Of a stretch of DNA of 64,000 nucleotides, positions 8,157-27,528 are shown piece after piece. Below the pieces are notes generated by a model that saw nothing but the letters and a program-made list of their open reading frames with translations, searched no databases and had not been told where the DNA came from. This DNA is from a virus. The position numbers and the translations under genes are program-made. Location: positions 1 through 64,000 of the IMG/VR virus record IMGVR_UViG_3300025809_002164; one strand, written 5' to 3'. How positions within the stretch are numbered: the stretch's first letter is position 1; each line of letters starts with the position of its first letter.

Positions 8157-8756
8157 ATGATATGCCATAAATATAAGACAATTTTTATTCATATCCCGAA
8201 AACTGGAGGAACTTCCATAGAATGTATGTTTGGGATGGTGAGATACATGGAGGGGAAAGTTGCGGCTTTCTCGGAGAATGTAGAAGGAAAGCATTTCACT
8301 TGCCATAGAGCTATGCAGCAATATGGGGATAATTTTGAAGAATATTACAAGTGGACAGTAGTTAGGAATCCTTGGACTAGAGATTTGTCAATATACAATA
8401 TGATGAAGGGGCAATTAAAGTATAGGCATATGAGCTTTGCTGAATTTCTGAACGAAGTAACAATTAAGGAAGTTAAGGCTGGCGAAAGGAATGTATTTAG
8501 GAATCAGACAGATTATATCTTAAATGATGGAGAAATTAAGGTGGATCAAATCATTCGATACGAAAATTTAAAGTATGGCTGGAATGAGGTTTGTAAGAAG
8601 CTAGGAAAGCCTCATGAAGAGCTGGTTCACTTAAGGAAAGCAAAAAAAAATCAATACTCTCAAGTGTTTAGCGGTGAAAATATTAAATTAATAGCTGAGC
8701 TAAGGAGGGAGGATATTCAACTTTTGGGCTATGAGCCGCCCTACATTATAGATTAA
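8157..8756 (+). CDS. Sulfotransferase (Sulfotransfer_2-like) 1
   Basis: 199 residues. The PAPS-binding 5'-phosphosulfate loop is HIPKTGGTSIE (about 13-23), and the 3'-phosphate site is WTVVRNPWTRDLSIYN. The family transfers sulfate from PAPS to carbohydrate hydroxyls. It is the only sulfotransferase of the island on the plus strand and lacks the C-terminal KHYTEYYDDET block shared by several others (it ends ELRREDIQLLGYEPP). It converges on the next gene with an 11-base overlap of stops. Confidence 0.85.
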   Translation: MICHKYKTIFIHIPKTGGTSIECMFGMVRYMEGKVAAFSENVEGKHFTCHRAMQQYGDNFEEYYKWTVVRNPWTRDLSIYNMMKGQLKYRHMSFAEFLNEVTIKEVKAGERNVFRNQTDYILNDGEIKVDQIIRYENLKYGWNEVCKKLGKPHEELVHLRKAKKNQYSQVFSGENIKLIAELRREDIQLLGYEPPYIID

Positions 8757-9471
8757 GATATTTTTTAAATAAAAACCTTTTACCTGTTGTTATTGTATGA
8801 TGTATGTACCATTGAATTTCGCTTGGTAACTTGAGCTTTAGTTTGTCAAATTCATCGAATGCTGTTTTTTTATTATAATTGGTAGCTTTGGGGTGATCTA
8901 TATGGTGGTTACTATCCCTGATGACTGGTAGACCTAAAATGTAAGAAATGGCGCACAGAACTATGTCCCAACCCCATCCGGTAGTATTACCGACGAAGCA
9001 TTCGTTTATTTTATTATTAAATAAATAATTAATTACTTTTGGGTGAATAAACCAGACAGTCTCATCTCCGTTAGCTATCACTTTTATATTTGGTTCTGGA
9101 GCCTCGACACTTTCTATGGTGGTAATTTTATCGTCGTACCATTCTACATTTTTTACTTTCGGGTAATAAATACCAGCATTATACTTAGACATGTAATGGC
9201 CTGAGTCTTTAATGAGTTGGGGCCAATTGCTGTATGATGTGTCGCCTTGAACATGAAAGAACACACTTTCGCCATCGTGAAGCTCGAGAGCTTTCAGGAA
9301 TTGAGAAGTAAAATAAGCGCTCTCTCCTATGTTGTGCCAGTAAGGTTTGAAGTTGTTTTCGTCGCTATTAATTACATGAACATGATCAATGCATGAATGT
9401 AAGGCTGACTCAATGCTTAATGTCGAGGAGAATTGATTACGCCAATTAAATATGAATGATTGTGTTTTCAT
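8746..9471 (-). CDS. Glycosyltransferase-like protein (GT-A type)
   Basis: 241 residues. The segment FFHVQGDTSYSNWPQLI looks like a nucleotide-sugar/metal-binding turn, and GNTTGWGWDIVLCA resembles the GWGWD/E motif of several GT-A transferases. Its start overlaps the stop of the sulfotransferase at 9468 in an ATGA arrangement. It ends the minus-strand glycan operon. Donor and acceptor are unknown. Confidence 0.6.
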   Translation of the reverse strand: MKTQSFIFNWRNQFSSTLSIESALHSCIDHVHVINSDENNFKPYWHNIGESAYFTSQFLKALELHDGESVFFHVQGDTSYSNWPQLIKDSGHYMSKYNAGIYYPKVKNVEWYDDKITTIESVEAPEPNIKVIANGDETVWFIHPKVINYLFNNKINECFVGNTTGWGWDIVLCAISYILGLPVIRDSNHHIDHPKATNYNKKTAFDEFDKLKLKLPSEIQWYIHHTITTGKRFLFKKYLNL

Positions 9472-9665
9472 AACCCAAATTTATACCCGAAATACTCAAT
9501 GTCTTTTGCGTATTTTTCCGCAACGATCTCCCTTGTTTCATCATCGTAGTATTCGGTGTAGTGTTTGTGGTTGCTTTTGTTTTCGTGTGGAAGTTGCCGC
9601 CTTGACATTTTAGCTTTATCACAAATTGCATTGAAATCTTGCTGGAGATTTTCAAATTTACCAAC
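9468..9665 (-). repeat. Sulfotransferase 3' repeat R1
   Basis: The 3' about 200 bases of this gene form a direct repeat with R2-R5. Positions 9475-9530 are identical over 56 bases to 14822-14877. A 38-base core is also identical at 12814-12851. Confidence 0.85.
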
Positions 9666-10046
9666 GTAATCCACCATCAGGCGGTCGTTATTTAAAATGA
9701 ATTCAGATTGATTTTCAATTGACAGATAAAATTGAAAGAAATTATCCTTATAGTCATTACCTTTACAGTGATTCAAAAATTTTATCCAATTTAAAAATGA
9801 ACTCCCATGACCAAACATTTCGTAATTATTCTTTAGTCTAAAGAAATAATAAGAAAGACTTCTATCCCAGGGATTCCTTACAAATGAAAACTTAAAATAT
9901 GATTTGAGGTGTTTTGCATCATATTCGTGAGCCATTAGATGTTTCTCCTTGCCATATAATTTGGATGCACAAAACAAGCTCTCGATGCTCGTACCTCCAG
10001 TTTTAGGAATGTGTACAAAAATTATTTTTTTATCATGGTTGATCAT
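9468..10046 (-). CDS. Sulfotransferase 2 (with shared C-terminal block)
   Basis: 192 residues. PAPS-binding motifs are VHIPKTGGTSIE and FVRNPWDRSLSYY. The C-terminal 33 residues (HKHYTEYYDDETREIVAEKY, then AKDIEYFGYKFG) are shared with four other island sulfotransferases almost identically at the DNA level. It lies between two glycosyltransferase genes. Confidence 0.9.
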   Translation of the reverse strand: MINHDKKIIFVHIPKTGGTSIESLFCASKLYGKEKHLMAHEYDAKHLKSYFKFSFVRNPWDRSLSYYFFRLKNNYEMFGHGSSFLNWIKFLNHCKGNDYKDNFFQFYLSIENQSEFILNNDRLMVDYVGKFENLQQDFNAICDKAKMSRRQLPHENKSNHKHYTEYYDDETREIVAEKYAKDIEYFGYKFGL

Positions 10047-10047
10047 T

Positions 10048-10809
10048 TTATAAAAACCAACAATTATGCTTGATCATTTTTTCGATTTTTGACTGCTTGC
10101 CAGAACTAATGCTGTTGAAGTGAATTATTTTACAAGTGTTAATTATTTCCTCGTGATGATTATAAAACCATTCTCCGTTAGGATATTCATCTCTATTTAA
10201 TAATTCTATATTTATAACATTCTCATCAACTAGGGATCTTAATATTTTTTGATCACAAATATTAAAATAATCTCTACTCAATAAATAATCTTCATTAAAA
10301 ATTTTTTTTATTATTGGGTATGATTCGTGATGTATTGCGCAAAATCCAGCGCACAAAAGATTTGGTTGTCCTTCTTGAAAAATAAAATCAATTTTATTTG
10401 CGTCGAGTTGAGAAAGTAAATTTTGTTCGAAATTTTGTTTAACTATTATGTCTGTATCAAGTTTAATTAAAGATCGCCCGCTAGATAAAATGTCAAGCGC
10501 AATTTCCCATACTGGCCAATTTAATGCATTAAATTCGGGGGTACTCCAAAAGCTATATTCGGATGTTAGGTTTTGTGTGATATTTAATTTATGGTTTACC
10601 CCTTCGTAATAGTTTACTACATCGCAGTGATCTGACATATATTCTAAAGAATGTTGATCGAGAGCAAAAAATACAATAGGAAAATCTAATCGTTTGCAAC
10701 TCTCTATTAAGTTATGAGCAAGATCAATTCCTCCAAAATTTGAACAGCAATAATTTACTGAATATCTTGGATACTGTTCTATAAATAAATTTATGTTTTT
10801 ATAGATCAT
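10048..10809 (-). CDS. Glycosyltransferase (nucleotide-diphospho-sugar transferase-like)
   Basis: 253 residues. The DXD motif is in LIKLDTDIIVKQNF. A following CAGFCAIHH segment and an acidic NICDQKILRSL match the layout of nucleotide-diphospho-sugar transferase-type GT-A proteins. It transfers an unknown sugar onto a phage or host glycan. It overlaps the next gene upstream by 11 bases. Confidence 0.7.
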   Translation of the reverse strand: MIYKNINLFIEQYPRYSVNYCCSNFGGIDLAHNLIESCKRLDFPIVFFALDQHSLEYMSDHCDVVNYYEGVNHKLNITQNLTSEYSFWSTPEFNALNWPVWEIALDILSSGRSLIKLDTDIIVKQNFEQNLLSQLDANKIDFIFQEGQPNLLCAGFCAIHHESYPIIKKIFNEDYLLSRDYFNICDQKILRSLVDENVINIELLNRDEYPNGEWFYNHHEEIINTCKIIHFNSISSGKQSKIEKMIKHNCWFL

Positions 10810-11509
10810 TCTTGGAGATCACTCTTACTTTTAGATTAGGGTTTACTTTGTTAATAAAGTTTTTATTTAATTTTCTGCCGTGCAATATTTTAATTTTATC
10901 TCTAGCTAGGTTTGCTGGAAAATCAGTGCGTAGGTTATAATTATTCGGTAATGTACAAACATTAGCTTTGTGTTTAAAAACAGATTCCAAAAAAGGAGTC
11001 TGATCATTTCCTGCAAGATTTAAATCTAGTCGATCTCGGTAAAATTTTAACCAATCATCGATAACATTTTGGCAAAGTTCACTGGAATTATAACCCAACA
11101 CTCCAGTGTTGTATGGCAGATAACCTACTAGCTCTTGACCTTTAATTCTTGGCCAATTATAATCCATTGGACCTGTCGCCGCGCAAAAATCGAAATGATC
11201 TAAAATTTTAAAAAGCTCTGAAAAATTGTCAAGTATAATAGTGTCCGTGTCAAGGAAAATAGATTTTTCATATATGCTAAACTTTAAGTGTTTAGGCTTA
11301 TTTAAAAGCATTGCACGCCAGTCACCAAAAGAACTTTCTGTTTTTATTATATTAAGATTGTCAATCGAGACTTTTAGATTTGTAATTAAGGTGACATCTC
11401 CGCTATAAAATTGCCTCAATGAATTATATGATTTTCTAAACTCATCGATGTATTTTCCGGATTCATCGATCACTAGATATACTATACCTTCTTTTGAGAG
11501 TTTTTTCAT
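10799..11509 (-). CDS. Glycosyltransferase (GT8-like)
   Basis: 236 residues. EKSIFLDTDTIILDNF carries the DXD motif. LPYNTGVLGYNSS, GNDQTPFLES and a C-terminal ILHGRKLN (the metal-binding His of GT8) follow in the right order. GT8 enzymes are retaining transferases such as glycogenin and LPS galactosyltransferases. The start overlaps the stop of sulfotransferase 3 (ATGA). Confidence 0.75.
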   Translation of the reverse strand: MKKLSKEGIVYLVIDESGKYIDEFRKSYNSLRQFYSGDVTLITNLKVSIDNLNIIKTESSFGDWRAMLLNKPKHLKFSIYEKSIFLDTDTIILDNFSELFKILDHFDFCAATGPMDYNWPRIKGQELVGYLPYNTGVLGYNSSELCQNVIDDWLKFYRDRLDLNLAGNDQTPFLESVFKHKANVCTLPNNYNLRTDFPANLARDKIKILHGRKLNKNFINKVNPNLKVRVISKNDL

Positions 11510-11700
11510 TTAAATTTATAATCAAAATACTCTATATCTTTGGCATATTTTTTGGCAACAATCTCGCAAGTTTCATCATTGTAGTATTCTGAATAGTGTT
11601 TGTGGGAAGATTTGTTTTCGTGTGGCAAATTGAAATTAGGAATATTTGAAATTGAGCAGATTTTAGATATATCTTCTTGGAGGAATTCTGTTTTTCCAAC
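11506..11700 (-). repeat. Sulfotransferase 3' repeat R2 (diverged)
   Basis: The same C-terminal block as R1, R3, R4 and R5, but with many synonymous and some amino-acid changes. It is the oldest or least-converted copy. Confidence 0.65.
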
Positions 11701-12096
11701 ATAATCTATAACTTGTTGATTATTTTTATAAATCCAGAAATGTTGAGGCTTTAAATGCTGTACCGAATTTATTGCGTCATCATTTAATTTATGCAAAACA
11801 AAATCTTCAAACGATTCTGAAGGTGTTCGCATATACTTGTTGTAGTGAAATGCATTTTTGTGATTGTGTCCTCCCGATTTGAGAAAAAAGAAAGCAGAGA
11901 CTAAACGATCAAAAGGATTTCTTACAAAAGAAAAAGAAAAATAATTTTTGTAGGAATTATCATATGGAAAAGGTTTTTTGAGTTTTGCTTCGCCGTGACC
12001 AAAGTATTCAATTTCTTTCAGATTTAAGTCTCGCAAAGCTTGCCACAATGAACATCCCGCGCATTTTGGAATATGTACGAATATAGCTTTTTTCAT
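11506..12096 (-). CDS. Sulfotransferase 3 (with shared C-terminal block)
   Basis: 196 residues with VHIPKCAGCSLWQAL (PAPS loop, Cys variant) and FVRNPFDRLVSAF. The C-terminus KHYSEYYNDETCEIVAKKYA is a diverged copy of the shared block. The stop and start overlap the neighbouring glycosyltransferase genes on both sides. Confidence 0.85.
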   Translation of the reverse strand: MKKAIFVHIPKCAGCSLWQALRDLNLKEIEYFGHGEAKLKKPFPYDNSYKNYFSFSFVRNPFDRLVSAFFFLKSGGHNHKNAFHYNKYMRTPSESFEDFVLHKLNDDAINSVQHLKPQHFWIYKNNQQVIDYVGKTEFLQEDISKICSISNIPNFNLPHENKSSHKHYSEYYNDETCEIVAKKYAKDIEYFDYKFK

Positions 12097-12791
12097 TAAT
12101 CGACTCTATGTTTAATTGGGTGATATATTCCAGGAGTGTTTCCGATTTCCATTTCCAAATGATCAACAAAAGGCAGATCAATTTCTCCAATTCTAGCTCC
12201 TTCTAGGTTTGCAATTGTTGGTAATCTAAGTTCGGAAATTATATCTTTTTCATACAGGTGCAGCCATTTTGAACTAAAGATAAGATCTAATAAAGATTTT
12301 CTTACAAGAAAAAATCCAAAAGAAATCAAGCCGACTGCGGTTTGATTGTTTTTTAAATTAAAATGATCCACTTCATTCCACCAAACCCAATTGTCTGCAC
12401 TCCAGTTTGAGACTTTCATTCCTTTAGGTTCCCATTTATTGCGAATATTAGGATTCTCAAGAAACATTGTGCTTCCAGCTAAATCTAAATCATTTGGCAG
12501 TTCGGGTATAGGACTCGATATGAATGTATCCCATTCGATCAATGCTACCACATCACCCTTAACATTTTGCTTGTTTTTTTGCCACCAATAAAATAACGGC
12601 TTATCGCCGTTTCTCCAGTTATATCTTTTTCCTTGTGGAGCATCTTCGCCCACAACAATATGTATATCTGTAGAGGGGTTACTTAGAGAAATGTGTTTAA
12701 GATGCGGTGATAGTATACTGTTGGTTGATTGATCAACATAAGTACTAATAATAATAGACTGTCTGCAACAATTATTGGTCACTGTCTTCAT
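12096..12791 (-). CDS. Glycosyltransferase-like protein
   Basis: 231 residues. VALIEWDTFISSPIP has an acidic metal-binding turn preceded by hydrophobic strands, as in GT-A folds. Later segments (FGFFLVRKSLLDLI, LPTIANLEGARIGEIDLPF) look like acceptor-side loops. There is no close family assignment. Gene order is sulfotransferase-glycosyltransferase, as in neighbouring cassettes. Confidence 0.55.
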   Translation of the reverse strand: MKTVTNNCCRQSIIISTYVDQSTNSILSPHLKHISLSNPSTDIHIVVGEDAPQGKRYNWRNGDKPLFYWWQKNKQNVKGDVVALIEWDTFISSPIPELPNDLDLAGSTMFLENPNIRNKWEPKGMKVSNWSADNWVWWNEVDHFNLKNNQTAVGLISFGFFLVRKSLLDLIFSSKWLHLYEKDIISELRLPTIANLEGARIGEIDLPFVDHLEMEIGNTPGIYHPIKHRVD

Positions 12792-12794
12792 ATT

Positions 12795-12990
12795 TTATTC
12801 TCCAAACTCATAACCGAAATACTCAATGTCTTTTGCGTATTTTTCCGCAACAATAGATTTTGTTTCGTCATCGTAGTATTCGGTGTAGTGTTTGTGTTTA
12901 GTTTTGTATGCATGAGGAAGTTGCTCTCTGGCAATCCCTATTTTGTCGCAGGCGGTATCAAAATCTTCTTGAAGGTTTTCAAAACGACCT
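12795..12990 (-). repeat. Sulfotransferase 3' repeat R3
   Basis: Shares 38 identical bases (12814-12851) with R1 and R5, and a second near-identical stretch encoding HYTEYYDDET around 12865-12900. Confidence 0.85.
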
Positions 12991-13391
12991 ATGAAATTGA
13001 TTTGACGTATAGGGTGTAATGTATGCATATAATCAAGACCGTGATAATAATCACCCTTATTAGGGTTATGCTTCGATCTGGATTTTGGCCATTCGGTAAA
13101 CTTTTTTAAAAATGTTTTAAAGTCTACTCCTTTGTAAAAATCTTTTACTCTCTTTACGGGGTACTCATGTTCAGTGTTTGTAAACCACTTGTATTCCGAT
13201 ACGATTTTATCATATGGATTTCTAACAAATGCGAACTTAAAGTAGTTATTATATTTTGCATTTAACTCTTGGTGGGATGTGTGATAATGTTGTTGATGTA
13301 CGAATGATTGTTTTTTTAAAATATGTTCTATACTCGTGCCTCCGCATTTTGGCACATGAATAAATACAGCTTTCAGTTTATTGCTTATCAT
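12795..13391 (-). CDS. Sulfotransferase 4 (with shared C-terminal block)
   Basis: 198 residues, PAPS motifs VHVPKCGGTSIE and FVRNPYDKIVSEY. The C-terminal KHKHYTEYYDDETKSIVAEK is the conserved block. The start overlaps the stop of the GT92-like gene by 14 bases. Confidence 0.9.
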   Translation of the reverse strand: MISNKLKAVFIHVPKCGGTSIEHILKKQSFVHQQHYHTSHQELNAKYNNYFKFAFVRNPYDKIVSEYKWFTNTEHEYPVKRVKDFYKGVDFKTFLKKFTEWPKSRSKHNPNKGDYYHGLDYMHTLHPIRQINFIGRFENLQEDFDTACDKIGIAREQLPHAYKTKHKHYTEYYDDETKSIVAEKYAKDIEYFGYEFGE

Positions 13392-14244
13392 TTTCTATTT
13401 TCCTCAAAAAAGTATCGTCATATATTTCTGGATAAGACGATGATTTTAAATCTTCAAAACTGTATCCGTCATTAATATACCAACCGTTGCTAATCAATTT
13501 GCTCTTAGCTTGTTCATCAGAAATGTACCTAAAGTGGTAACATAAAAACTCCCCATTTTCAATATCTTTGCTTCTTAAGTTTAGGAACCGACCATTCGCT
13601 AGTCTGCCGCCTGTTAAATCACAACCGTTAAAGTTGCACTTAAGTGGGTAAGGCTCATGATCTAATAGATACTTGAATTCGCTTGGTTTGAAAATAGTTT
13701 TATATTCGATTCCATCGTATCTGCATCTAAATTTTTGAACTGCGTGTGGGTGTCGTTTATCATGATCATGTCTATAAACTACCTCTTTTAATACACTTTT
13801 TGGATTTTTGCTTAATTTGGCTCCAGACATAAAAACCCAAGGAACACTAATGGAGTTAACATTCTCTCGAACTGTTCGCAAACGTTGCGCTATCGTTAAA
13901 TCGAATTGTTTTTTAGTCACCATGAATTCGTCTACATCACAATATATTAACCATTCGTAGTTTCCTTTAATCTTAGATCTGAATATTTTGTTTGACGGAG
14001 AATTTTTGTCTAGCTTACATTGTTGGGCGGTATTTGTGTTTTCGTAATTTCTTTTTTGGTAAATAATATTTACATTTTTATATTCTTTATTGCTCGCAAA
14101 ATCATATATAGATTTATCTTCGGAGTCATCATCTATTACATAAATTGAGTCAGCGCCTTGAGATAAATAGTAGTCAACCCATTCTTTGATGTAAAACTCG
14201 TCCCTACATCGAGTTAGTATTGATAAAAATTTTTTATTTTTCAT
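13378..14244 (-). CDS. Glycosyltransferase (GT92/DUF23-like)
   Basis: 288 residues. The start LSILTRCRDEFYIKEWVDYY plus the ADSIYVIDDDSEDKS and LIYCDVDEFMV motifs are typical of GT92/Glyco_tranf_2_4 proteins, whose members transfer galactose to fucose or other core residues. The second DXD (DVDEF) is the predicted metal site. It lies between sulfotransferases 4 and 5. Confidence 0.8.
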   Translation of the reverse strand: MKNKKFLSILTRCRDEFYIKEWVDYYLSQGADSIYVIDDDSEDKSIYDFASNKEYKNVNIIYQKRNYENTNTAQQCKLDKNSPSNKIFRSKIKGNYEWLIYCDVDEFMVTKKQFDLTIAQRLRTVRENVNSISVPWVFMSGAKLSKNPKSVLKEVVYRHDHDKRHPHAVQKFRCRYDGIEYKTIFKPSEFKYLLDHEPYPLKCNFNGCDLTGGRLANGRFLNLRSKDIENGEFLCYHFRYISDEQAKSKLISNGWYINDGYSFEDLKSSSYPEIYDDTFLRKIENDKQ

Positions 14245-14250
14245 ATGTAT

Positions 14251-14445
14251 TTATTCTTTAAATTTGTAACCAAAGTACTCAATGTCTCGTGCATATTTTT
14301 CCGCAACAATTTGCCGTGTTTCGTCGTCGTAGTATTCGGTGTAGTGTTTGTGTTTGGACTTGTTTTTGTGTGGAAGTTGTTGTCGTGAAATACCAATTTT
14401 GTCGCAGATGATGTTGAAGTCTTCTTGGTAATTTTCAAATCTCCC
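14251..14445 (-). repeat. Sulfotransferase 3' repeat R4
   Basis: Homologous to R1, R3 and R5. It also shares the upstream segment encoding CDKIGIxRQQLPHxNKSKHK with R5, so the repeat extends to about 195 bases. Confidence 0.8.
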
Positions 14446-14808
14446 GATAAAATCCATGTCTACGTCATTATTTTGATTTACAAAATATTTTGTCAATGGC
14501 TGACAATATTTCATGACACCTTTGTTTTTTAATTTAACAGAGCTCTTGAAGGAATGTTTAGCAAGTTCGATATCAGGATCTACCAATTTTCCTTGTGTTC
14601 TTCCATGATATACGGAAACTAACCTATCAAATGGATTTCTAGCAAACCCGAATTTGAAATAATCATTATATTGATATGGGTATTTTATTTGATATTTTCT
14701 TAAATAAATGTGATCTACTTTTATATACCCTTGAAAGAGGTATTCTATACTATTACCACCACATTTATTGGGGTGAATGAAAATAAATTTATGTTCATCG
14801 TTTATCAT
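14251..14808 (-). CDS. Sulfotransferase 5 (with shared C-terminal block)
   Basis: 185 residues. The PAPS loop is IHPNKCGGNSIEYLF, a variant with Asn for Pro-adjacent Ile. The second motif is FARNPFDRLVSVY. The C-terminus KHYTEYYDDETRQIVAEKYA is the conserved block. It lies directly beside sulfotransferase 6, so two sulfotransferases are adjacent here without a glycosyltransferase between them. Confidence 0.85.
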   Translation of the reverse strand: MINDEHKFIFIHPNKCGGNSIEYLFQGYIKVDHIYLRKYQIKYPYQYNDYFKFGFARNPFDRLVSVYHGRTQGKLVDPDIELAKHSFKSSVKLKNKGVMKYCQPLTKYFVNQNNDVDMDFIGRFENYQEDFNIICDKIGISRQQLPHKNKSKHKHYTEYYDDETRQIVAEKYARDIEYFGYKFKE

Positions 14809-14811
14809 ATT

Positions 14812-15010
14812 TTAATCTTCTCCAAATTTATACCCGAAATACTCAATGTCTTTTGCGTATTTTTCCGCAACGATCTCACGAGTTTCGTCATCGTAGTATT
14901 CAGTGTAGTGTTTATGTTTGGTTTTGTTCTCATGTGGGAGTTGTTGTTTTGGTATCCCGATTTTGTCGCAGATGATGTTGAAGTCTTCTTCGAGGTTTTC
15001 AAATTTTCCA
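14812..15010 (-). repeat. Sulfotransferase 3' repeat R5
   Basis: Positions 14822-14877 are identical to 9475-9530 in R1 over 56 bases, about 5.3 kb apart and in the same orientation. Confidence 0.85.
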
Positions 15011-15405
15011 ATGAAATTTATTTTATCATTTATGAATTGATGTTGATGCATACAGTGATTACCCATTACTCCATTTTTATTTTTTTTTGCTAGCTGTATT
15101 AGTTCTTTTTTTATGTCGTTACTTAATTTTAAATACTTTTTTAAGTAAAAATATTCAGATACCAAACGGTCAAAAGGATTTCTTACAAAAGCAAAAGAGT
15201 AAAACTTTTTCAAGTTAGGGTAAAGCACTTTCGATTTCTCTATATCGTCTAAAGTGCAATGATTTAATGGATAATGTAATTTTAGATTATGAGGCCAAGT
15301 ATTCCCCCTAAAAATACAACTACCATCTACCAAACTTTCTTCTAAAGTTGTTCCGCCGCATTTGGGGATGTGAATGAAAATAAATTTATGTTTTAATGAA
15401 ATCAT
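14812..15405 (-). CDS. Sulfotransferase 6 (with shared C-terminal block)
   Basis: 197 residues from the ATG at 15405. This start has the AAATATATG context and matches the MISxKHKFIFIHIPKCGG start of its paralogues; the frame is open to 15426. PAPS motifs are IHIPKCGGTTLEESL and FVRNPFDRLVSEYF. The C-terminus KHYTEYYDDETREIVAEKYA is the conserved block. It overlaps the GT31-like gene by 20 bases. Confidence 0.9.
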   Translation of the reverse strand: MISLKHKFIFIHIPKCGGTTLEESLVDGSCIFRGNTWPHNLKLHYPLNHCTLDDIEKSKVLYPNLKKFYSFAFVRNPFDRLVSEYFYLKKYLKLSNDIKKELIQLAKKNKNGVMGNHCMHQHQFINDKINFIGKFENLEEDFNIICDKIGIPKQQLPHENKTKHKHYTEYYDDETREIVAEKYAKDIEYFGYKFGED

Positions 15406-16051
15406 ATATTTTCTCCATAGTTTCAAAATTCACATAATGTGTTGTGATTTTATTTTCTTTAATTATTGCGTTAATGCATACTGACTGATTTTGTTTTGCT
15501 GTTGCTGGATTAGGTGTTGATATAGAATCAGTATGTATTAAATTTATTTCTTGTTCTTTTAAAGCAAGACCAACTGAATAATCCTCCGCTCTTTTTGTTT
15601 TAGATTCGTCGCCATAAAAATGTTTTAAAGACTCCACACACTTTTTCACAGCAGTTCTTGTTAAGGCATATCCAGCTCCACCCTGAGCATAGGGAAATGG
15701 ATTAACTATTTTACCGCCAATATATAATTCATCATCAGGATTATAATTTTTTAGTAAGTTTATCAATTTATCAAATGCAACATATGTGTCATCATCACAT
15801 TTAAACAAAAAATCCCATTCATAATCTAATGATTTTACTAGCATTTTGTATGTTTTTTTTGGTAGCCGATGCCTGTGTTCTCCTTCATCTGGGCTACAGT
15901 TCCATGTTTTACCCATAGCTTCAGATTGAATTTTGTCCCCATAAAAAAAATAATCATGCGGGGATTTTATGTCTTTAATCCATGTAGCAAGACAAGCATC
16001 CGCTCGTTCTTGAGTTGATGAACATGTTAAAATTGTAGTAAGTATTTTCAT
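15386..16051 (-). CDS. Fringe/C1GalT-like glycosyltransferase (GT31)
   Basis: 221 residues. The start KILTTILTCSSTQERADACL with a following TW motif, the DDD-type metal site FLFKCDDDTYVAFDKL, the glycine-rich GGAGYALTRTAVKKC and the RAEDYSVGLAL acid motif follow the GT31 fringe/core-1 galactosyltransferase order. These beta-1,3-transferases are mostly known from eukaryotes. Substrate here unknown. Confidence 0.8.
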   Translation of the reverse strand: MKILTTILTCSSTQERADACLATWIKDIKSPHDYFFYGDKIQSEAMGKTWNCSPDEGEHRHRLPKKTYKMLVKSLDYEWDFLFKCDDDTYVAFDKLINLLKNYNPDDELYIGGKIVNPFPYAQGGAGYALTRTAVKKCVESLKHFYGDESKTKRAEDYSVGLALKEQEINLIHTDSISTPNPATAKQNQSVCINAIIKENKITTHYVNFETMEKIYDFIKT

Positions 16052-16806
16052 ATTCCTAATAAATTTTTAATTAAATCAATTCTCAACTTACTCGCATCAA
16101 GGTTTTTATACTGATCGTATTTTGTTTGCAAGGTACGAATATTATAATGAGACACGTGAACCACTCCGTATTTTTCGTTTTCAATGTATCCTATATTAGA
16201 ACCTGCAAGTATCTTGTTTTCCACAGGATCAATGTATCCACCCAATTCATGTCGATTTCTTGTCATTAAAATGTCGTGTTGATTTCTTAAATCTTCAGCA
16301 GAATCATTGTTTTGTGGCATAAAATTATATTGAAAAAATTCTTGATCGTGGTAGTGATCTGTCTGTTGTTTTAATATATCAATTCTTTGATTGCTAACTT
16401 CCGCAAATGCTTTGCATAAATTTTCAAATTGAGATGGTGTTCCACTTGCAAGAAATGGACAATCATTATCCATCAAATGAAGTTTATCGTTGGGTTCTGT
16501 GATCGGGAAATTCACATTAATTGCATCATAATCAGAAACATAAAATTTTTCATCTGCTTGAGTGGCATATGCTAACCAACGAAACCAACAACTCATTCCG
16601 TAGTCATTTATTTCTTTTTTTGCAATTTCTTTGCAGATTCTACGCATTTCTGTGTTTAATGTTTCAAAATAGGGATGTCTTTTTGCATCTTCTAAATTTA
16701 AAACAATTGGTTCGTAACCTTGACGAGACCAACTTATTTTCCACAAGTCAATAAGTTCGTTTTGGGAAGGGTGGTTGATATTCTGGTAGTATGTGTATAT
16801 TTTCAT
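16048..16806 (-). CDS. Glycosyltransferase-like protein
   Basis: 252 residues. KIYTYYQNINHPSQNELIDL starts a Rossmann-like strand, and KFYVSDYDAINVNFP carries a DYD motif at the usual GT-A metal-binding position. The C-terminus has VVHVSHYNIRT, a possible late His ligand. Overlaps the GT31-like gene (ATGA). Not assigned to a family with confidence. Confidence 0.55.
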   Translation of the reverse strand: MKIYTYYQNINHPSQNELIDLWKISWSRQGYEPIVLNLEDAKRHPYFETLNTEMRRICKEIAKKEINDYGMSCWFRWLAYATQADEKFYVSDYDAINVNFPITEPNDKLHLMDNDCPFLASGTPSQFENLCKAFAEVSNQRIDILKQQTDHYHDQEFFQYNFMPQNNDSAEDLRNQHDILMTRNRHELGGYIDPVENKILAGSNIGYIENEKYGVVHVSHYNIRTLQTKYDQYKNLDASKLRIDLIKNLLGI

Positions 16807-17457
16807 TTAATATTCATATCCTTTTAATTGTATTACATTTTTTTCTTTCTCTGCGACTAGGTCAATTAATTGTTGGTTGTAGATGTCGAGCATGTTGAGT
16901 GAGTTTGCGCTCTTGTTTCCATGTTGAAGGCTTGGAGCTTGAATGCCTACTTGATTGCACAAAAAAACAAATTCATTTTGCAAATTATTAAACTCGGCAA
17001 TATGATCTACTGTAATTTTTCCACTTTCATCGAAGTAATATGAATCTTGTGAGTCGTTGTTTAATATAATGTTTTTTAACACCGATTGATCATCTTTATT
17101 TTGAAATAATTCTTCGCAAAGTTTTCCTTGGTTGAGTTCTGGTTCGCGCCAATTTATTGATTTATCCCTACGCAAATACTTTTCGCCGTAACTTTTAAAA
17201 TACTTAAAAAAACTAAAGTAACGAGCCCATGGATTACGTACAGTTGTAAATTTAAAATAATCGTTCCAATTCCAGTCGTTTTTTGCGAATTGTTTTTTTA
17301 CGCGAATCGCGCCATCATGCTGATAAAATTCTGAATCTAAGTTTGGTTCTCCACAAGCATCTAGGATGCCCAATGGTAGTAAGCTTTCCCGAAAAGACCG
17401 ACTGCCAGTTTTAGGTATGTCAATTATAACGAATTTATGTTTATGAGAAATAAGCAT
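16807..17457 (-). CDS. Sulfotransferase 7
   Basis: 216 residues. The PAPS loop is VIIDIPKTGSRSFRESL and the 3'-phosphate motif is FTTVRNPWARYFSFF. It has the FNNLQNEFVFLCNQVGI segment of the family but not the DNA-identical KHYTEYYDDET block (it ends DIYNQQLIDLVAEKEKNVIQ). It starts 4 bases after sulfotransferase 8. Confidence 0.85.
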   Translation of the reverse strand: MLISHKHKFVIIDIPKTGSRSFRESLLPLGILDACGEPNLDSEFYQHDGAIRVKKQFAKNDWNWNDYFKFTTVRNPWARYFSFFKYFKSYGEKYLRRDKSINWREPELNQGKLCEELFQNKDDQSVLKNIILNNDSQDSYYFDESGKITVDHIAEFNNLQNEFVFLCNQVGIQAPSLQHGNKSANSLNMLDIYNQQLIDLVAEKEKNVIQLKGYEY

Positions 17458-17461
17458 AGAC

Positions 17462-18046
17462 TTAAAACAAGTATTTATAAGTTTCTATATCGCTTTCGTA
17501 TTTTTTAGATACTAATTTTTTGCAGTCATCATTATAATAATCTTGATAAAATTTATGATTCGAGCGGTTGGACTGATTGATCGAGACAATCGGGTATTGT
17601 ATATGCGTGCATACATGATTAAAGTCCTCCTGTAAATTTTCAGTTTTTCCGATAAAATCCATAGGCCTGTCCAGTCTTTTAGTTTGCGGTTGAAAATGCA
17701 ACCATTCGTCAATACAGGTGTGATTGTGACCCCTTGAGTTTATATAATTAACAGGAATGTCATTACATAAATATGTTAGAAACTTGTCAAATCCTCCAAG
17801 GGATTTTAAAAAATTGCCAAATAACTCATCCTCTTTATTTAAGCCTCCATCGATAAGAAAAAAATATGCACTTACAACTCTAGACCATGGATTTCTTGTA
17901 AAACTAAATTTAAAAGAATCGTGAAGCTCTTTTTCAGAATAAGAACTAGGTTTTCGGTGATAACAGTCTTGGGTTGATAGATTTAGCGCCTCTATTATAG
18001 AAATTCCCCCAGCCTTGGGAATGTGGACAAAAATAAGATTTTTCAT
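17462..18046 (-). CDS. Sulfotransferase 8
   Basis: 194 residues. The motifs are VHIPKAGGISIIEAL and FTRNPWSRVVSAYFF. The C-terminus NHKFYQDYYNDDCKKLVSKK is a remote version of the shared block, visible at protein level but not as DNA identity. It overlaps the methyltransferase gene upstream by one base. Confidence 0.85.
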   Translation of the reverse strand: MKNLIFVHIPKAGGISIIEALNLSTQDCYHRKPSSYSEKELHDSFKFSFTRNPWSRVVSAYFFLIDGGLNKEDELFGNFLKSLGGFDKFLTYLCNDIPVNYINSRGHNHTCIDEWLHFQPQTKRLDRPMDFIGKTENLQEDFNHVCTHIQYPIVSINQSNRSNHKFYQDYYNDDCKKLVSKKYESDIETYKYLF

Positions 18047-20350: not shown

Positions 20351-21161
20351 GTTTATGGTTAAATTCTAGTCTTTGTTTTATGTTACACATGAATTGCTCC
20401 CATTCTCGATAACTTTTGTTGCATAAAATTTTTACCTGTTTTATGATTTCTAATATTCTCTCGTTTCTATCTTTGATATTATCGTATGATTCATCTATGT
20501 AGGGATGAAATGTTTGAAAGCCTTCTTGCTTCAGTAATTTTAATGTTTGATAATTTCCTGCAAGAATAAATGGATGCTTCATCCAAAAACATTTGTAGGT
20601 TTTTTCTGTATAACGATTGGAAAGTGTGGTCATTTCTGTTTCTTGGACTAGTGAAAAGCGAGAATGTTTAAAAAAATTAAAGTCAATGCTTTGCCAGCAA
20701 GATTTATTACCTTTTTTGCTTTTATCATAATCAATGATTTTCGGTAAATGAGGAAGTTTTAGGTTGTAATTTTTTTTGACAGAGCCGCAAGACCATAGGT
20801 TTTCTTCCAATAAATCATTAACAAAAAGGTTTGAAAGCATATGCAGTTTGTCTTCTCGCGGAAACCCGCAAAGATATGTAAAATCATACTTATATTTTTT
20901 GTATTTTGGTGGATTTATATCTCTATATAATGTCCAGCAGAAGTTTTTATAAAAAATATTTTTTGAGTTAGATAGCTTTTCATTCATTGTATAAAACACA
21001 CAAGGACGATTATACTTTTTTGAATATTCTGCTGTTAGTTTAGATAGTAATTCTCTTGTATAAAAACAATGATCTTCAAAAGAGCTATCTAGTACGATAA
21101 GGCCGTCTGTAATAATTAAATCGTAAACTATATCGTTCGAATAAATTCGTTCAACATTCAC
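20325..21161 (-). CDS. Probable glycosyltransferase (GT10-like C-terminal half)
   Basis: 278 residues. The C-terminal half has FSLVQETEMTTLSNRYTEKT, KHPFILAGNYQTLKLLKQEG and FQTFHPYIDESYD. This pattern is found in fucosyltransferase-superfamily-like glycosyltransferases of phages and giant viruses, where the TEKT and late acidic motifs bind the nucleotide sugar. The N-terminal half is not recognised. Family level is uncertain. Confidence 0.5.
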   Translation of the reverse strand: MNVERIYSNDIVYDLIITDGLIVLDSSFEDHCFYTRELLSKLTAEYSKKYNRPCVFYTMNEKLSNSKNIFYKNFCWTLYRDINPPKYKKYKYDFTYLCGFPREDKLHMLSNLFVNDLLEENLWSCGSVKKNYNLKLPHLPKIIDYDKSKKGNKSCWQSIDFNFFKHSRFSLVQETEMTTLSNRYTEKTYKCFWMKHPFILAGNYQTLKLLKQEGFQTFHPYIDESYDNIKDRNERILEIIKQVKILCNKSYREWEQFMCNIKQRLEFNHKHATSRKNC

Positions 21162-22173
21162 AATACCTACTCCATAATTTTCTGTCCCAATATGTGCGAT
21201 CTAGAAATTTTTGTTGAATAGTTGGGTCTAGGTCTTCGAATTTTATTTTTAGTTTGTTTGGAGTTGCGTTGCGATGTAAATTTGATTCAATGACATGATC
21301 CTCCACATCTGATTGTTCAATGCCATAAGCTCCATGAAAAACTTTGTTTATAAGGTCATCTACTTTACTTACATCAGAAATGCGAAAATCTTTTAGGTAT
21401 CCTTCGTGCGCTAAAGTTAGATGATGTGGTTCAATAATTGCCGAATCAGGCATGTCCATTAAGCTTCGCAAGAACCAACTGTCTTCTAGTTCATCTGATT
21501 CTATATATTCTTGAAAACTTTTAGAAACAAGACAATCATGATTCGGTTCGTGGGAACTATTATCGCTCTTGATGTAATTAAATATAGACAAAGCTCTATC
21601 GTATGGATTTCTTAATACCGTAAAATTTAAAGCATGCTTTCTTTCCGAAAATAGAAGAACTTTATCAATAAAAATTCTTGCGTCTTTCCAACCGATTGAA
21701 TTATCTGCAGATTTTAATCCTCCCCAAAAAATTGGGTCAACAATAACGCAAAAAGGTATAATATCTCCACTTTCAATAAAATTTAAAAAGTCATCCTCTG
21801 GAATAATGTTCGTTGTTTCATCTGAGCCATTAGGGTATCTGCTATTAATATATTCCATTTGTTTTTCAAGAACAATCTCCCTTTTGTTTTCTATCGAAAA
21901 TTGTTCGAGTTCGGGATAAATGCTAAAAATTCCATTAGGATGACCAGTTAAATCTGTAAGGGTGCAGTATATAATTGTCAACTGGCGATTGTCTTTTAAT
22001 CTAATCAATGCTCTCCTAATTTTTGCAGAAGTCCAATAGAGAGATAAATGATTTCCACTCATTAAATGATACTTTCTGCAAAGCATTTGCGCCCAGCTTA
22101 ATACATATGTTCCTGCATTTTTGGCAATGTGATGAAATACAGGTAAGTATTGTGGTTCTTTAATTATGCTCAT
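21151..22173 (-). CDS. Long sulfotransferase-like protein 9
   Basis: 340 residues, nearly twice the size of the others. FHHIAKNAGTYVLSW is the PAPS loop equivalent, and FTVLRNPYDRALSIFNYI the 3'-phosphate motif. These are about 170 residues apart, with an inserted region between, which suggests a different acceptor domain. It overlaps the 20325 gene by 11 bases. Confidence 0.7.
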   Translation of the reverse strand: MSIIKEPQYLPVFHHIAKNAGTYVLSWAQMLCRKYHLMSGNHLSLYWTSAKIRRALIRLKDNRQLTIIYCTLTDLTGHPNGIFSIYPELEQFSIENKREIVLEKQMEYINSRYPNGSDETTNIIPEDDFLNFIESGDIIPFCVIVDPIFWGGLKSADNSIGWKDARIFIDKVLLFSERKHALNFTVLRNPYDRALSIFNYIKSDNSSHEPNHDCLVSKSFQEYIESDELEDSWFLRSLMDMPDSAIIEPHHLTLAHEGYLKDFRISDVSKVDDLINKVFHGAYGIEQSDVEDHVIESNLHRNATPNKLKIKFEDLDPTIQQKFLDRTYWDRKLWSRYCEC

Positions 22174-23000
22174 TTTTTATGTAATATAATTGTTTGTGGG
22201 TATTGTTCTTTTACACTTTTTATTGAAGTTCCCGTGTCAATGGTTAGTGAAAAATTCGAAATAATCGGCGAATCTATTAACCTATTATCGGGTAGATCTG
22301 GATTGTTGAAGTATTTTCTTCCATGAAGTGTGCCTAGAAAATTATGCATACCAACATCAAAGCTGACGAAATGATTTTTGTTTGAAGCTACTTTATTAAT
22401 AATGGTTTTTCTTGACAAGCCTAAGAAAGCTTTAAGGTTTTCAGATCGTCTGTAAATAGCTACTCCGTTTAAATGCCCAGTCCAAGAATCGAAAGAGGGG
22501 AGTTGATGTTTACCTCTATACATACTTCCAGCGATCATAAATGATGAGTTGTCGCAGTATTCTATGACTTTATCTGCCCAGTAGTTTTTAATGGGAAAGG
22601 TGTCGCATTCGATCATTAAGTAGTCCCTGTAAGGCTCGCCCATTAAAGGGGTCATGCTATTAAAGAATAAATTATTAGGCCCAGAAGAGCCTCCAAGAGC
22701 GGGCATTTCCATGCCTTGTAGCTTTTTAAGCTCTTGAGGAGTTCTGCAGTATAGATCGTCTAGCCCTTTAAGGTTCAAACTTTTAATTATAACTTTATTA
22801 ATGTTTTTACTTTTTTCGTATTTTAATAAATCTGAATAATTAGATAAGTCGCCGTTGTTAAAGAAAATCTTAACGTCAATAGAATGCCCTTGAGACGCTT
22901 CTGATGAGAAATATGAATCGAGGCATTTATGAACCTCTCCAGATCTGTATTCTTTAGATGTGGCGAGAAGAACTAAACATAATTTATTAGAGTAAATCAT
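22170..23000 (-). CDS. Glycosyltransferase-like protein (GT-A type)
   Basis: 276 residues. LCLVLLATSKEYRSGEVHKC starts a GT-A-like N-terminus and DYLMIECDTFPIKNYW holds an acidic metal site. WTGHLNGVAIYRRSENL corresponds to the acceptor-side GxNG(V/A) pattern. It starts inside the end of the lipoprotein gene (ATGA overlap). Donor unknown. Confidence 0.6.
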   Translation of the reverse strand: MIYSNKLCLVLLATSKEYRSGEVHKCLDSYFSSEASQGHSIDVKIFFNNGDLSNYSDLLKYEKSKNINKVIIKSLNLKGLDDLYCRTPQELKKLQGMEMPALGGSSGPNNLFFNSMTPLMGEPYRDYLMIECDTFPIKNYWADKVIEYCDNSSFMIAGSMYRGKHQLPSFDSWTGHLNGVAIYRRSENLKAFLGLSRKTIINKVASNKNHFVSFDVGMHNFLGTLHGRKYFNNPDLPDNRLIDSPIISNFSLTIDTGTSIKSVKEQYPQTIILHKK

Positions 23001-23229: not shown

Positions 23230-24033
23230 TTATTCAGGTCTTTTACCTAAAGGTTTTCCGTCCTGACCAATTTGGCCATCTCTAATTTTTGTAGCAGAAA
23301 CTTCTTGCAACTCCTTACTTAACTCCAACTGTTCAATATTATAGCCAACTCCCCTGCCGTAAAATACATCCATGATATTTGGCAGTTCAATGACTTTAAT
23401 TTTATTTCCAAATTCTATGCAAGCAGAGTGTATTTCTTTTTTTACTTTTTCAAAATTGTATGGATTGCTATCATTAATTCCGCCAACATCTCTTAATGCT
23501 ATGCAGCATTGACCTGTCCTTTTTACGGCCTCAGCAACAAGGCTCTTGTGCCCGATGTGAAATGGTTGATACCTGCCTATAAGTAAGGCGGTTGGGGCTT
23601 GATTATCCCACTCTTCAGTTTGGCCTAATTTTTCAACAACTTTATCGACCCACTCTTCTGCAGTTCCTTCGATAAGTCTTAAGTCGTAATTCAGGGGTTT
23701 TTCAAACATTTTATTTGTATCTTCGTATCTACCTTCTTGAATTCTATCAACCCATATTGTGAAATCTGCATTAAATGCCTGCCGAGTTTCTTGGGTTGGG
23801 CATACAAAATCTGCAATCACATAACTCCCGCCCATTTTGGCCCAATCGCATAATTTGCCCATTCTGGTGGCGTGAGATAGTCGATCTTGAGGAGAGAACC
23901 CAAGCTCTGAGTATATATCCTGCCTGACCGCGTCAGCATTAAACCAAGCTGCTTTTAGTTTTTTAACTAAAATTTCAGCCAACGTAGTTTTGCCAGATCC
24001 TGGCAGCCCCATAATAAGAATCTTTCTTTTCAT
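23230..24033 (-). CDS. APS kinase-like / NMN adenylyltransferase-like fusion
   Basis: 267 residues, two domains. Residues 1-125 are a P-loop kinase of the APS-kinase type: GLPGSGKTTLAEIL, FNADAVRQDIYSELGFS and GSYVIADFVCPTQETR. Residues about 145-267 are a nucleotidyltransferase: LIGRYQPFHIGHKSLV (HxGH) and VSATKIRDGQ, closer to archaeal-type NMN adenylyltransferase than to ATP sulfurylase. The first domain could make PAPS from APS for the nine sulfotransferases downstream; the second could make APS-like or dinucleotide products. An NAD-salvage role is the main alternative. Confidence 0.8.
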   Translation of the reverse strand: MKRKILIMGLPGSGKTTLAEILVKKLKAAWFNADAVRQDIYSELGFSPQDRLSHATRMGKLCDWAKMGGSYVIADFVCPTQETRQAFNADFTIWVDRIQEGRYEDTNKMFEKPLNYDLRLIEGTAEEWVDKVVEKLGQTEEWDNQAPTALLIGRYQPFHIGHKSLVAEAVKRTGQCCIALRDVGGINDSNPYNFEKVKKEIHSACIEFGNKIKVIELPNIMDVFYGRGVGYNIEQLELSKELQEVSATKIRDGQIGQDGKPLGKRPE

Positions 24034-26000: not shown

Positions 26001-26690
26001 TTAAACCGAACTAATACTCCTTTCTTTTTGCCTTTCAGCCCCAAATAAATATTTAATTGACTCATGACCCTTAGATAGAAGTTTGGATTCGTCCTCAGAG
26101 CTTATTTCTATTTTTATGTAGGATTTAATTTTTTCCACAATGTCCGAACAAACACACTGAACTGCTTGGTGGCTAACCCCTAAAAGCTCTGCCATTTGTG
26201 GGAAGTTTTTACCCATAATTAGTAAATCTAGTACATTTTTCTGATGAGGATTTAAGAAATGACTATAATTTTTTATATATTTAATTATATTTTCAGCTTT
26301 ATCTGATTTATTTAATTTTGATTGAGACTCATCTTCCTCACCTTTAACATCACACATTAGCTCAAACAAGGTTATGGTGGAGCCTTCTGAATTCGTGTGA
26401 GTTGAGTCTTGCTTCTTACTTATGTATTTCTTGTCCCTAGAGGTAGTTCCATCTGACTTCCATTTGATGTGATTACGTGCATAGGTATACATCAATTTAC
26501 CGAAATCTTCCTGACTGTCAATGTCGCTACTTAGTATTTTTTCTTTATCTTTAACTATGGCAAGATTTATTTCTGAAAGTAAATCATCTGAATCTAGGGC
26601 ATGATTAGTATATCTATGTTTACCTATAATTCTAGAGAAATCTTCTTGGTAGGAAATGAGCCATTCGTCGAATTTATTTTTTATACTCAT
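26001..26690 (-). CDS. Sigma70-like factor 2
   Basis: 229 residues. An N-terminal region 2-like segment (ALDSDDLLSEINLAIVKDKE, then FGKLMYTYARNHIKWKS) and a C-terminal HTH (LNPHQKNVLDLLIMGKNFPQ, MAELLGVSHQAVQCVCSDIV) mirror a sigma factor with regions 2 and 4. It may direct late transcription. Its start lies in the end of the HTH protein gene at 26674. Activity on RNA polymerase is unproven. Confidence 0.6.
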   Translation of the reverse strand: MSIKNKFDEWLISYQEDFSRIIGKHRYTNHALDSDDLLSEINLAIVKDKEKILSSDIDSQEDFGKLMYTYARNHIKWKSDGTTSRDKKYISKKQDSTHTNSEGSTITLFELMCDVKGEEDESQSKLNKSDKAENIIKYIKNYSHFLNPHQKNVLDLLIMGKNFPQMAELLGVSHQAVQCVCSDIVEKIKSYIKIEISSEDESKLLSKGHESIKYLFGAERQKERSISSV

Positions 26691-27528
26691 GATTTTTAAT
26701 ACAGTTGTTGATAGTTATTTTTGAAGTTTTTAAGGATTTGCATATTGAGTTAAAAGAATCGCCTTTCTCTATTAGAGCTATTACTTTAGGTGTCATCCTG
26801 TCAATATAAGCCTGCTGGAGTTTTTTCTTTGAGGCCCTAATACCCGTAATCCTTTTAGAGTTATCAGAATCGTTGAATTTGTAATATTGAACTGGAAAAT
26901 CATTGGCCCAATCTACTTCTGGGAATTTTTTAAGAAGCTGCTGGAAATATCTTTGGCTTACTCCTATATATTTTGCAGCTTTTAATCTGCAGTTATTATT
27001 CAGCTTTAGACCTATAAACATTCTCTCCTTGAACGCATCTCTTTCAGCCTTAGGCCAAGGTTTCCATTTCCCTTCCCATCTCATATAATTTTTCTCTTCC
27101 TTTGAGAAGTTTTGGCTAATTTTATTTACATTAAATTTAGGCTGAGTTTTTCTGAGCTTTACCAGCTGAATTTTCTGTTTGTCAGTTCTTAATGAAGTGA
27201 ATCTAAATAACACATTAACCGAATTCGGGAAAGCTGCATTTTTAATGCACTCCCAATCCTTTACTGTTAATCTTAAGCCGTTAATTACTGAATTGGTGTG
27301 AAGCATATTAATGCTTATACCTTTTAACTTGCAGCTCGGGCTTGACTCTTTAGATTTATTTTTTAAAATCCTTCTAGCAAGTTCAGAAGATCTTGATTTA
27401 ACTATAACTTTATAGTCTTGATCTGTTGATCCTGGCGAACTTTCGGTATATTTAATTGACCAATATTGATCGAACTGAAATTTAACATTTTTAACTTTTA
27501 ATTGTATTGGTTTTTTTCTTCTTCCCAT
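26674..27528 (-). CDS. HTH DNA-binding protein with basic N-terminus
   Basis: 284 residues. The basic start MGRRKKPIQLKVKN is AT-hook-like. Two HTH-like segments appear: RLKAAKYIGVSQRYFQQLLK around residue 185 and FNSICKSLKTSKITINNCIK near the C-terminus. It lies in front of the second sigma-like gene, with a leaderless promoter 7 bases upstream, so it is likely co-regulated with it. The exact family is unknown. Confidence 0.6.
   Translation of the reverse strand: MGRRKKPIQLKVKNVKFQFDQYWSIKYTESSPGSTDQDYKVIVKSRSSELARRILKNKSKESSPSCKLKGISINMLHTNSVINGLRLTVKDWECIKNAAFPNSVNVLFRFTSLRTDKQKIQLVKLRKTQPKFNVNKISQNFSKEEKNYMRWEGKWKPWPKAERDAFKERMFIGLKLNNNCRLKAAKYIGVSQRYFQQLLKKFPEVDWANDFPVQYYKFNDSDNSKRITGIRASKKKLQQAYIDRMTPKVIALIEKGDSFNSICKSLKTSKITINNCIKNHEYKK

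What the first reader, a model, noticed from the sequence alone, without database searches (positions are those of the whole stretch)
9468..15405. Sulfotransferase 3' direct repeats bracket glycosyltransferase cassettes
Seen directly: five sulfotransferase genes share a 3' block. Between 9475-9530 and 14822-14877 it is identical over 56 bases, including synonymous sites, and a 38-base core also recurs at 12814-12851. The N-terminal parts of the proteins are far less alike, and different glycosyltransferase types (GT8-like, GT92-like, unassigned) sit between the repeats. Inference: the shared ends act as recombination sites that delete, duplicate or swap sulfotransferase-glycosyltransferase cassettes, so related phages would show a different number and order of cassettes. 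This would be a way to vary glycan structure quickly.
Basis: partly seen in the sequence, partly recalled or inferred. Interest (0 to 1): 0.85.

Follow-up and report, generated by a model that had tools for sequence, protein, structure and literature searches.

The report
Phage sulfotransferases recombining through shared ends
A group of uncultured marine phages carries rows of sulfate-adding enzyme genes whose last ~100 bases are alike, and comparison of related phages shows that crossovers inside these shared ends delete or add genes and create hybrid enzymes, in a gene island that differs from phage to phage.

Summary
Five PF03567 sulfotransferase (ST) genes share a 3' block; 9475-9530 and 14822-14877 are identical over 56 nt, and a 38-nt core recurs in a third gene. 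Protein conservation alone does not explain it: for ST1/ST5 all 18 scorable codons at the 3' end are identical, against 25 of 51 elsewhere (p=3.5e-5). ST5 is ~79% identical to its ortholog in another phage along the whole gene, yet its 3' end matches ST1 of its own genome. ST1, ST3 and ST5 (partly ST4) are homogenised; ST2 is not. The block recurs in over 60 other viral contigs on STs with unlike bodies. Two contig pairs show the predicted recombinants: genes gained or lost with the crossover inside the block, one making a chimeric ST. The island lies between conserved flanks, but gene number and order differ between relatives. The phage encodes a UvsX-like recombinase. Limits: homogenisation is episodic (6 of 34 multi-copy contigs); junctions are no commoner at ST ends than at other gene ends; the proven units are ST genes, not ST-glycosyltransferase cassettes; no effect on a glycan is shown. 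Best reading: homologous recombination and gene conversion at a conserved 3' module.

The parts
9468..10046 (-). ST1, PF03567 sulfotransferase with the block
   Evidence: Pfam E 9.1e-22
9468..9572 (-). 3' block of ST1 (last 34 codons and stop); 9475-9530 identical to 14822-14877
11506..12096 (-). ST2, sulfotransferase; block present as protein motif (11506-11607) but not homogenised in DNA
12795..13391 (-). ST3, sulfotransferase with homogenised block
12795..12899 (-). 3' block of ST3; 38-nt core shared with ST1 and ST5
14251..14808 (-). ST4, sulfotransferase; block 14251-14355 partly homogenised (with ST3)
14812..15405 (-). ST5, sulfotransferase; ortholog in L009 is 78% identical in protein
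14812..14919 (-). 3' block of ST5 (last 35 codons and stop): three C-terminal helices in the model
8746..9471 (-). gene next to ST1 in the island, no Pfam hit (GTx1)
10048..10809 (-). nucleotide-diphospho-sugar transferase-like gene between ST1 and ST2
   Evidence: PF03407 E 9.5e-06
10799..11509 (-). GT8-like glycosyltransferase (below Pfam cut-off)
   Evidence: PF01501 E 2e-4
12096..12791 (-). unassigned gene between ST2 and ST3 (GTx2)
   Evidence: no Pfam hit
13378..14244 (-). GT2/GT92-like glycosyltransferase; adjacent to an ST3 homolog also in contig 33273_000833
   Evidence: PF13704/PF01697; adjacency
15386..16051 (-). Fringe-like glycosyltransferase upstream of ST5; downstream of the ST5 ortholog in L009
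   Evidence: PF02434 E 9.4e-18
16048..16806 (-). island gene GTx3; 87% identical homolog in contig 23109_003600
16807..18046 (-). two STs without the block (ST6 16807-17457, ST7 17462-18046)
21151..23000 (-). conserved left edge of the island: ST8-like gene and GTx5, shared with G017, G025, G010
23230..24033 (-). APS-kinase-like / cytidylyltransferase-like fusion near the island, a possible step of sulfate donor supply (inference)
   Evidence: PF01583 E 2.3e-12, PF01467
57888..58985 (-). UvsX-like recombinase of the phage, a candidate engine of the recombination
   Evidence: phrog_97 E 1.4e-39

Best explanation
The 3' end of these ST genes encodes a conserved C-terminal helical module of the PAPS-dependent sulfotransferase fold. 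Because protein constraint keeps it alike in paralogs, it is the stretch with enough DNA identity for homologous recombination between ST copies. Crossovers there delete or add the DNA between two copies and leave a gene with one body and another gene's C-terminal module. Non-crossover events (gene conversion) homogenise the block within a genome, as in ST1, ST3 and ST5. Together with ordinary gene gain and loss at gene ends, this makes a hypervariable glycan-modification island between conserved flanks. Shown by sequence: homogenisation, recombinant junctions, a chimeric gene, a variable island. Inferred: that a phage recombinase (the UvsX-like gene) does it, that chimeras are active enzymes, and that the outcome changes a sulfated glycan.
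For: Synonymous sites: the ST1/ST3/ST5 block is far more alike than the rest of the genes. ST5 against its ortholog in L009 is ~79% nt along the gene and 73% in codons 177-186, but ST5 against ST1 is 39-69% in the body and 100% there, so the event postdates the split from that phage. Over 150 nonredundant STs from 69 contigs, within-contig codon identity stands out in the block (z 4.3, none of 1000 permutations; other parts z about 2-2.6), and the nearest neighbour of the block's last 18 codons is in the same contig for 13% of genes against 2% in permutations. Extreme pairs: L039 28 of 29 block codons identical against 6 of 14 in the N-part; L012 27 of 30 against 10 of 20. Recombinants: contigs 42731_011319 and 17731_002846 differ by a 1,346-bp unit, and the ST at the junction has the body of one gene and the 3' end and downstream DNA of another (...IIRFGYKFEKPA in place of ...ESIERFNYKFGE); 17746_004298 and 17730_002981 differ by one 615-bp ST unit with 106 nt of overlap at the block. 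Orphan 3' blocks directly behind other genes at seven places, and two in-frame N-plus-C scars. Same flanks, different island content and order in relatives. Model: block = helices 167-170, 173-182, 184-190, pLDDT about 97. UvsX-like gene present.
Against: Breakpoints are not enriched at ST block ends over other gene ends (54% each). Without the window and two other contigs, the within-genome excess in the block falls to z 2.6-2.8, similar to other parts. Only two contig pairs show repeat-bounded units. All sequences are metagenome contigs. The direction of the two events (loss or gain) is not settled.
Confidence: 0.76

Rival explanations
1. Ordinary paralogs: the C-terminus is conserved by selection on the protein and the DNA similarity follows from that and from codon bias, without recombination.
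For: The block is the native end of the PF03567 domain (matches reach profile position 251-252), and ST2 shows no synonymous excess. In most multi-copy contigs no pair exceeds the 99th percentile of between-contig pairs.
Against: The ST1/ST3/ST5 synonymous tests, the ST5 ortholog comparison, the expectation from contig-specific codon usage (within-contig ratio 1.21-1.26 in the block, 1.10-1.12 elsewhere), and the chimeric junctions.
Confidence: 0.1
2. General phage mosaicism only: genes in the island are gained and lost by illegitimate or end-joining events at gene boundaries, and the block plays no special part.
For: Breakpoints are equally common at other gene ends. A 741-bp gene is present or absent exactly at an ST stop codon without flanking homology.
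Against: Three of four indels with at least 38 nt of flanking repeat are at ST blocks; the chimeric C-terminus and block homogenisation need homologous exchange.
Confidence: 0.12
3. The block is a dedicated site: a folded DNA or RNA element, or the target of a site-specific recombinase, which explains its synonymous conservation across phages.
For: Several codon positions are strongly fixed across 75 blocks (E188 GAG 0.82 against 0.26 pooled; Y189 TAT 0.91 against 0.44), and real blocks fold better than blocks recoded from pooled codons.
Against: Of six candidate base pairs tested, four show no covariation (p 0.32-1.0) and two have low uncorrected p (0.013, 0.001); the consensus is not unusually stable (p 0.078). 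Copies in one genome differ by 20-37%, and no recombinase was found among the island genes scanned.
Confidence: 0.05
4. Assembly artefact: short-read metagenome assemblies joined different cassettes at the repeats.
For: All records are metagenome contigs; the window has a 56-nt exact repeat.
Against: In the chimeric case the parental ends are divergent and the recombinant is in a different virus at 80-87% identity, so it is not a mixture of those reads; the homogenised codons in the window lie inside single genes.
Confidence: 0.04

Closest known systems
T-even phage distal tail fibre / gp38 adhesin swapping by recombination between conserved motifs (Tetart et al. 1998, as cited in PMC3797505)
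   Same: Conserved short stretches let homologous recombination swap variable parts of a surface-interaction gene in a plastic part of a phage genome.
   Different: Here the genes are multi-copy enzymes (sulfotransferases), the constant part is the 3' end, copies recombine within one genome, and arrays change in gene number.
Gene conversion in multigene families for antigenic variation, such as trypanosome VSG genes or Neisseria pilS/pilE (from general knowledge, not tested)
   Same: Conserved ends of paralogs act as homology for conversion tracts, and bodies vary.
   Different: No expression site with silent copies is seen; the five STs are intact and lie in one operon-like row.
phrog_3347 galactose-3-O-sulfotransferase genes in cultured phages (Synechococcus ACG-2014f, Stenotrophomonas DLP_6)
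   Same: Same enzyme family.
   Different: One matching place per record at 23-31% identity; no array was seen.

Membership tests
PF03567 Sulfotransfer_2 | Profile match over curated cut-off | tested here: met
   61-83 bits against cut-off 22 for all five
PF03567 Sulfotransfer_2 | PAPS-binding motifs (IPKTGG loop; RNP...S) kept | tested here: met
   R75 and S83 invariant and K15, N76, P77 nearly invariant in 71 proteins; the assignment of the motifs rests on general knowledge of the fold
PF03567 Sulfotransfer_2 | Sulfotransferase fold | tested here: met
   Model pLDDT 91; the best PDB matches are sulfotransferases with probability up to 0.99, though none has E below 0.001
PF03567 Sulfotransfer_2 | PAPS-dependent sulfate transfer to a glycan | not testable with these tools
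   needs an enzyme assay
Modular shuffling by homologous recombination between conserved motifs (T-even type) | Conserved segment next to variable segment with lower synonymous divergence | tested here: met
Modular shuffling by homologous recombination between conserved motifs (T-even type) | Recombinant genomes with junction inside the conserved segment | tested here: met
   two contig pairs
Modular shuffling by homologous recombination between conserved motifs (T-even type) | Junctions concentrated at the conserved segment | tested here: not met
   54% at ST block ends and 54% at other gene ends
Modular shuffling by homologous recombination between conserved motifs (T-even type) | Swap changes specificity (host range or product) | not testable with these tools
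   no isolate, no glycan data
Site-specific cassette system (integron- or shufflon-like) | Near-identical sites with conserved inverted repeats and a cognate recombinase | tested here: not met
   copies 63-80% alike, weak inverted repeats, no convincing covariation, no recombinase among the island genes scanned

The most novel reading that the evidence does not exclude
The island is a phage diversification locus in which ST 3' ends are kept alike partly because they serve as recombination substrates, so that phage populations continually make new chimeric sulfotransferases and new sulfation patterns on virion or host glycans.
Probability: 0.2. Interest if true: 0.85.

Novelty: new variant of a known kind. 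Interest (0 to 1): 0.6.

Why it matters
Multi-copy sulfotransferase arrays in phages were not found described in the open literature searched, where the role of phage sulfotransferases is called unclear (PMC10580990). The chimeric gene and repeat-bounded gene gain or loss give a concrete, testable route by which phages may vary a sulfated glycan, and extend motif-mediated shuffling from tail fibres to glycan-modifying enzymes.

Tried and rejected
DNA search in cultured phages: no match. Enrichment of mosaic breakpoints at ST ends: not found. Conserved hairpin in the block: suggested by the pooled-codon folding test, but covariation and consensus stability did not support it; site-specific recombination was rejected for the same reasons. 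Bacterial sources: 12 distant homologs in genome contigs, the best 45% in a Halobacteriovorax MAG contig, not pursued. PDB sequence search with ST5 alone gave no sulfotransferase; the profile did. Literature on phage sulfotransferase arrays: none found.

Full report
What was checked. The window is part of a 146,036-base virus record. Island genes run on the minus strand from about 8.7 to 23 kb. Five of the nine PF03567 genes of the record (here ST1-ST5) carry the 3' block. The coordinates of the 56-nt and 38-nt matches are right.

Protein or DNA conservation? The block is the normal C-terminal end of the Pfam domain, so protein conservation was expected. To separate this from DNA homogenisation I compared codons only where two genes have the same amino acid. 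In the N-terminal motifs and the middle, identity is about half, close to the expectation from codon usage. In the last 18 positions ST1 and ST5 have 18 of 18 identical codons; for the whole block ST1/ST3 have 25 of 28 and ST3/ST5 24 of 29. ST2 has no excess and ST4 a partial one. The ST5 ortholog in contig 46170_000519 (L009) is about 79% identical in DNA along the gene and 73% in codons 177-186, whereas ST5 and ST1, otherwise 39-69% identical, are identical there. This dates a conversion-type event after the split of the two phages.

How general is it? The block or its protein motif was found in more than 60 other IMG/VR contigs. Among 150 nonredundant genes from 69 contigs, within-contig codon identity is raised above label permutations in the block (z 4.3), against z of about 2 to 2.6 elsewhere, and the nearest neighbour of the last 18 codons is in the same contig for 13% of genes against 2% expected. 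The effect is episodic: 7 of 130 within-contig pairs, in 6 of 34 multi-copy contigs, exceed the 99th percentile of between-contig pairs; without the window and two other contigs z falls to 2.6-2.8.

Recombinant junctions. Contigs 17731_002846 (L056) and 42731_011319 (L225) share flanks at 80-87%. L225 lacks a 1,346-bp unit present in L056, and the ST at the junction has the body of one L056 gene but the last ~95 nt, stop and downstream DNA of another, changing the C-terminus from ESIERFNYKFGE to IIRFGYKFEKPA. Contigs 17746_004298 and 17730_002981 differ by one 615-bp ST unit with 106 nt of overlap at the block; the single-ST contig has the body of one gene and the tail and downstream DNA of the other. 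Among the indels found between related contigs, three of four distinct events with at least 38 nt of flanking repeat lie at ST blocks. Orphan blocks lie behind a GDP-mannose dehydratase, an RmlD-like gene, a methyltransferase and a papain-like gene, and one alpha/beta-hydrolase-like gene ends in a grafted block. Two short ORFs are N-terminus plus C-terminus scars. Solo 5' ends occur too, at four places, so gene decay is not confined to the 3' end.

Counter-evidence. When all long HSPs between related contigs are considered, they end at ST block ends as often as at other gene ends (54% each), so the island is mosaic in general. In one family a 741-bp gene is present, absent or replaced exactly at an ST stop codon, without flanking homology.

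Island plasticity. The window, G017, G025 and G010 share the flanks (PPase, GTx5 and an ST8-like gene on one side, backbone genes on the other), but the genes between differ in number and order. The best relatives of the window's island genes lie in different contigs: GTx3 87% in 23109_003600, ST6 76% in 24346_011330, ST5 78% in 46170_000519, Fringe-like 68% in 9436_000025, and GT92-ST3 as an adjacent pair in 33273_000833. In L009 the Fringe-like gene is downstream of the ST5 ortholog, in the window upstream of ST5.

Structure and mechanism. The model of ST5 (71-sequence alignment, pLDDT 91) has the block as three C-terminal helices after the last core helix, and the best PDB matches are sulfotransferases. 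A crossover just before or within this module would leave the core intact, which is a reason why chimeras could be functional (inference). The phage encodes a UvsX-like recombinase and an APS-kinase-like fusion gene near the island. No cultured phage has DNA similar to the island stretch 9468-15405, and the known phage homologs of ST5 are single genes at 23-31% identity.

Verdict.

Noticed in passing
window 23230-24033: APS-kinase-like domain fused to a cytidylyltransferase-like domain; 34 contigs carry relatives at 70% identity or more with very different neighbours, so the gene itself moves.
   Followed up: partly
3' blocks of 75 contig STs (window 9468-9572 and others): Position-specific codon preferences across phages (E188 GAG 0.82, Y189 TAT 0.91) that pooled codon usage does not predict; shared ancestry or a DNA-level constraint, not resolved.
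   Followed up: partly
L110:16715-17371: Alpha/beta-hydrolase-like gene whose last ~20 residues are the ST block.
   Followed up: partly
window 8157-8756: A sulfotransferase on the opposite strand at the edge of the island, without the block.
   Followed up: no
window 26674-27528: Weak hit to a sulfatase C-terminal domain (PF16347, E 0.003), below cut-off.
   Followed up: no
window 55382-57907: Two adjacent 420-aa glycosyltransferases of phrog_24687, a possible tandem pair outside the island.
   Followed up: no
virus record 117986-126940 (outside the window): A 2,984-aa open reading frame, not examined.
   Followed up: no
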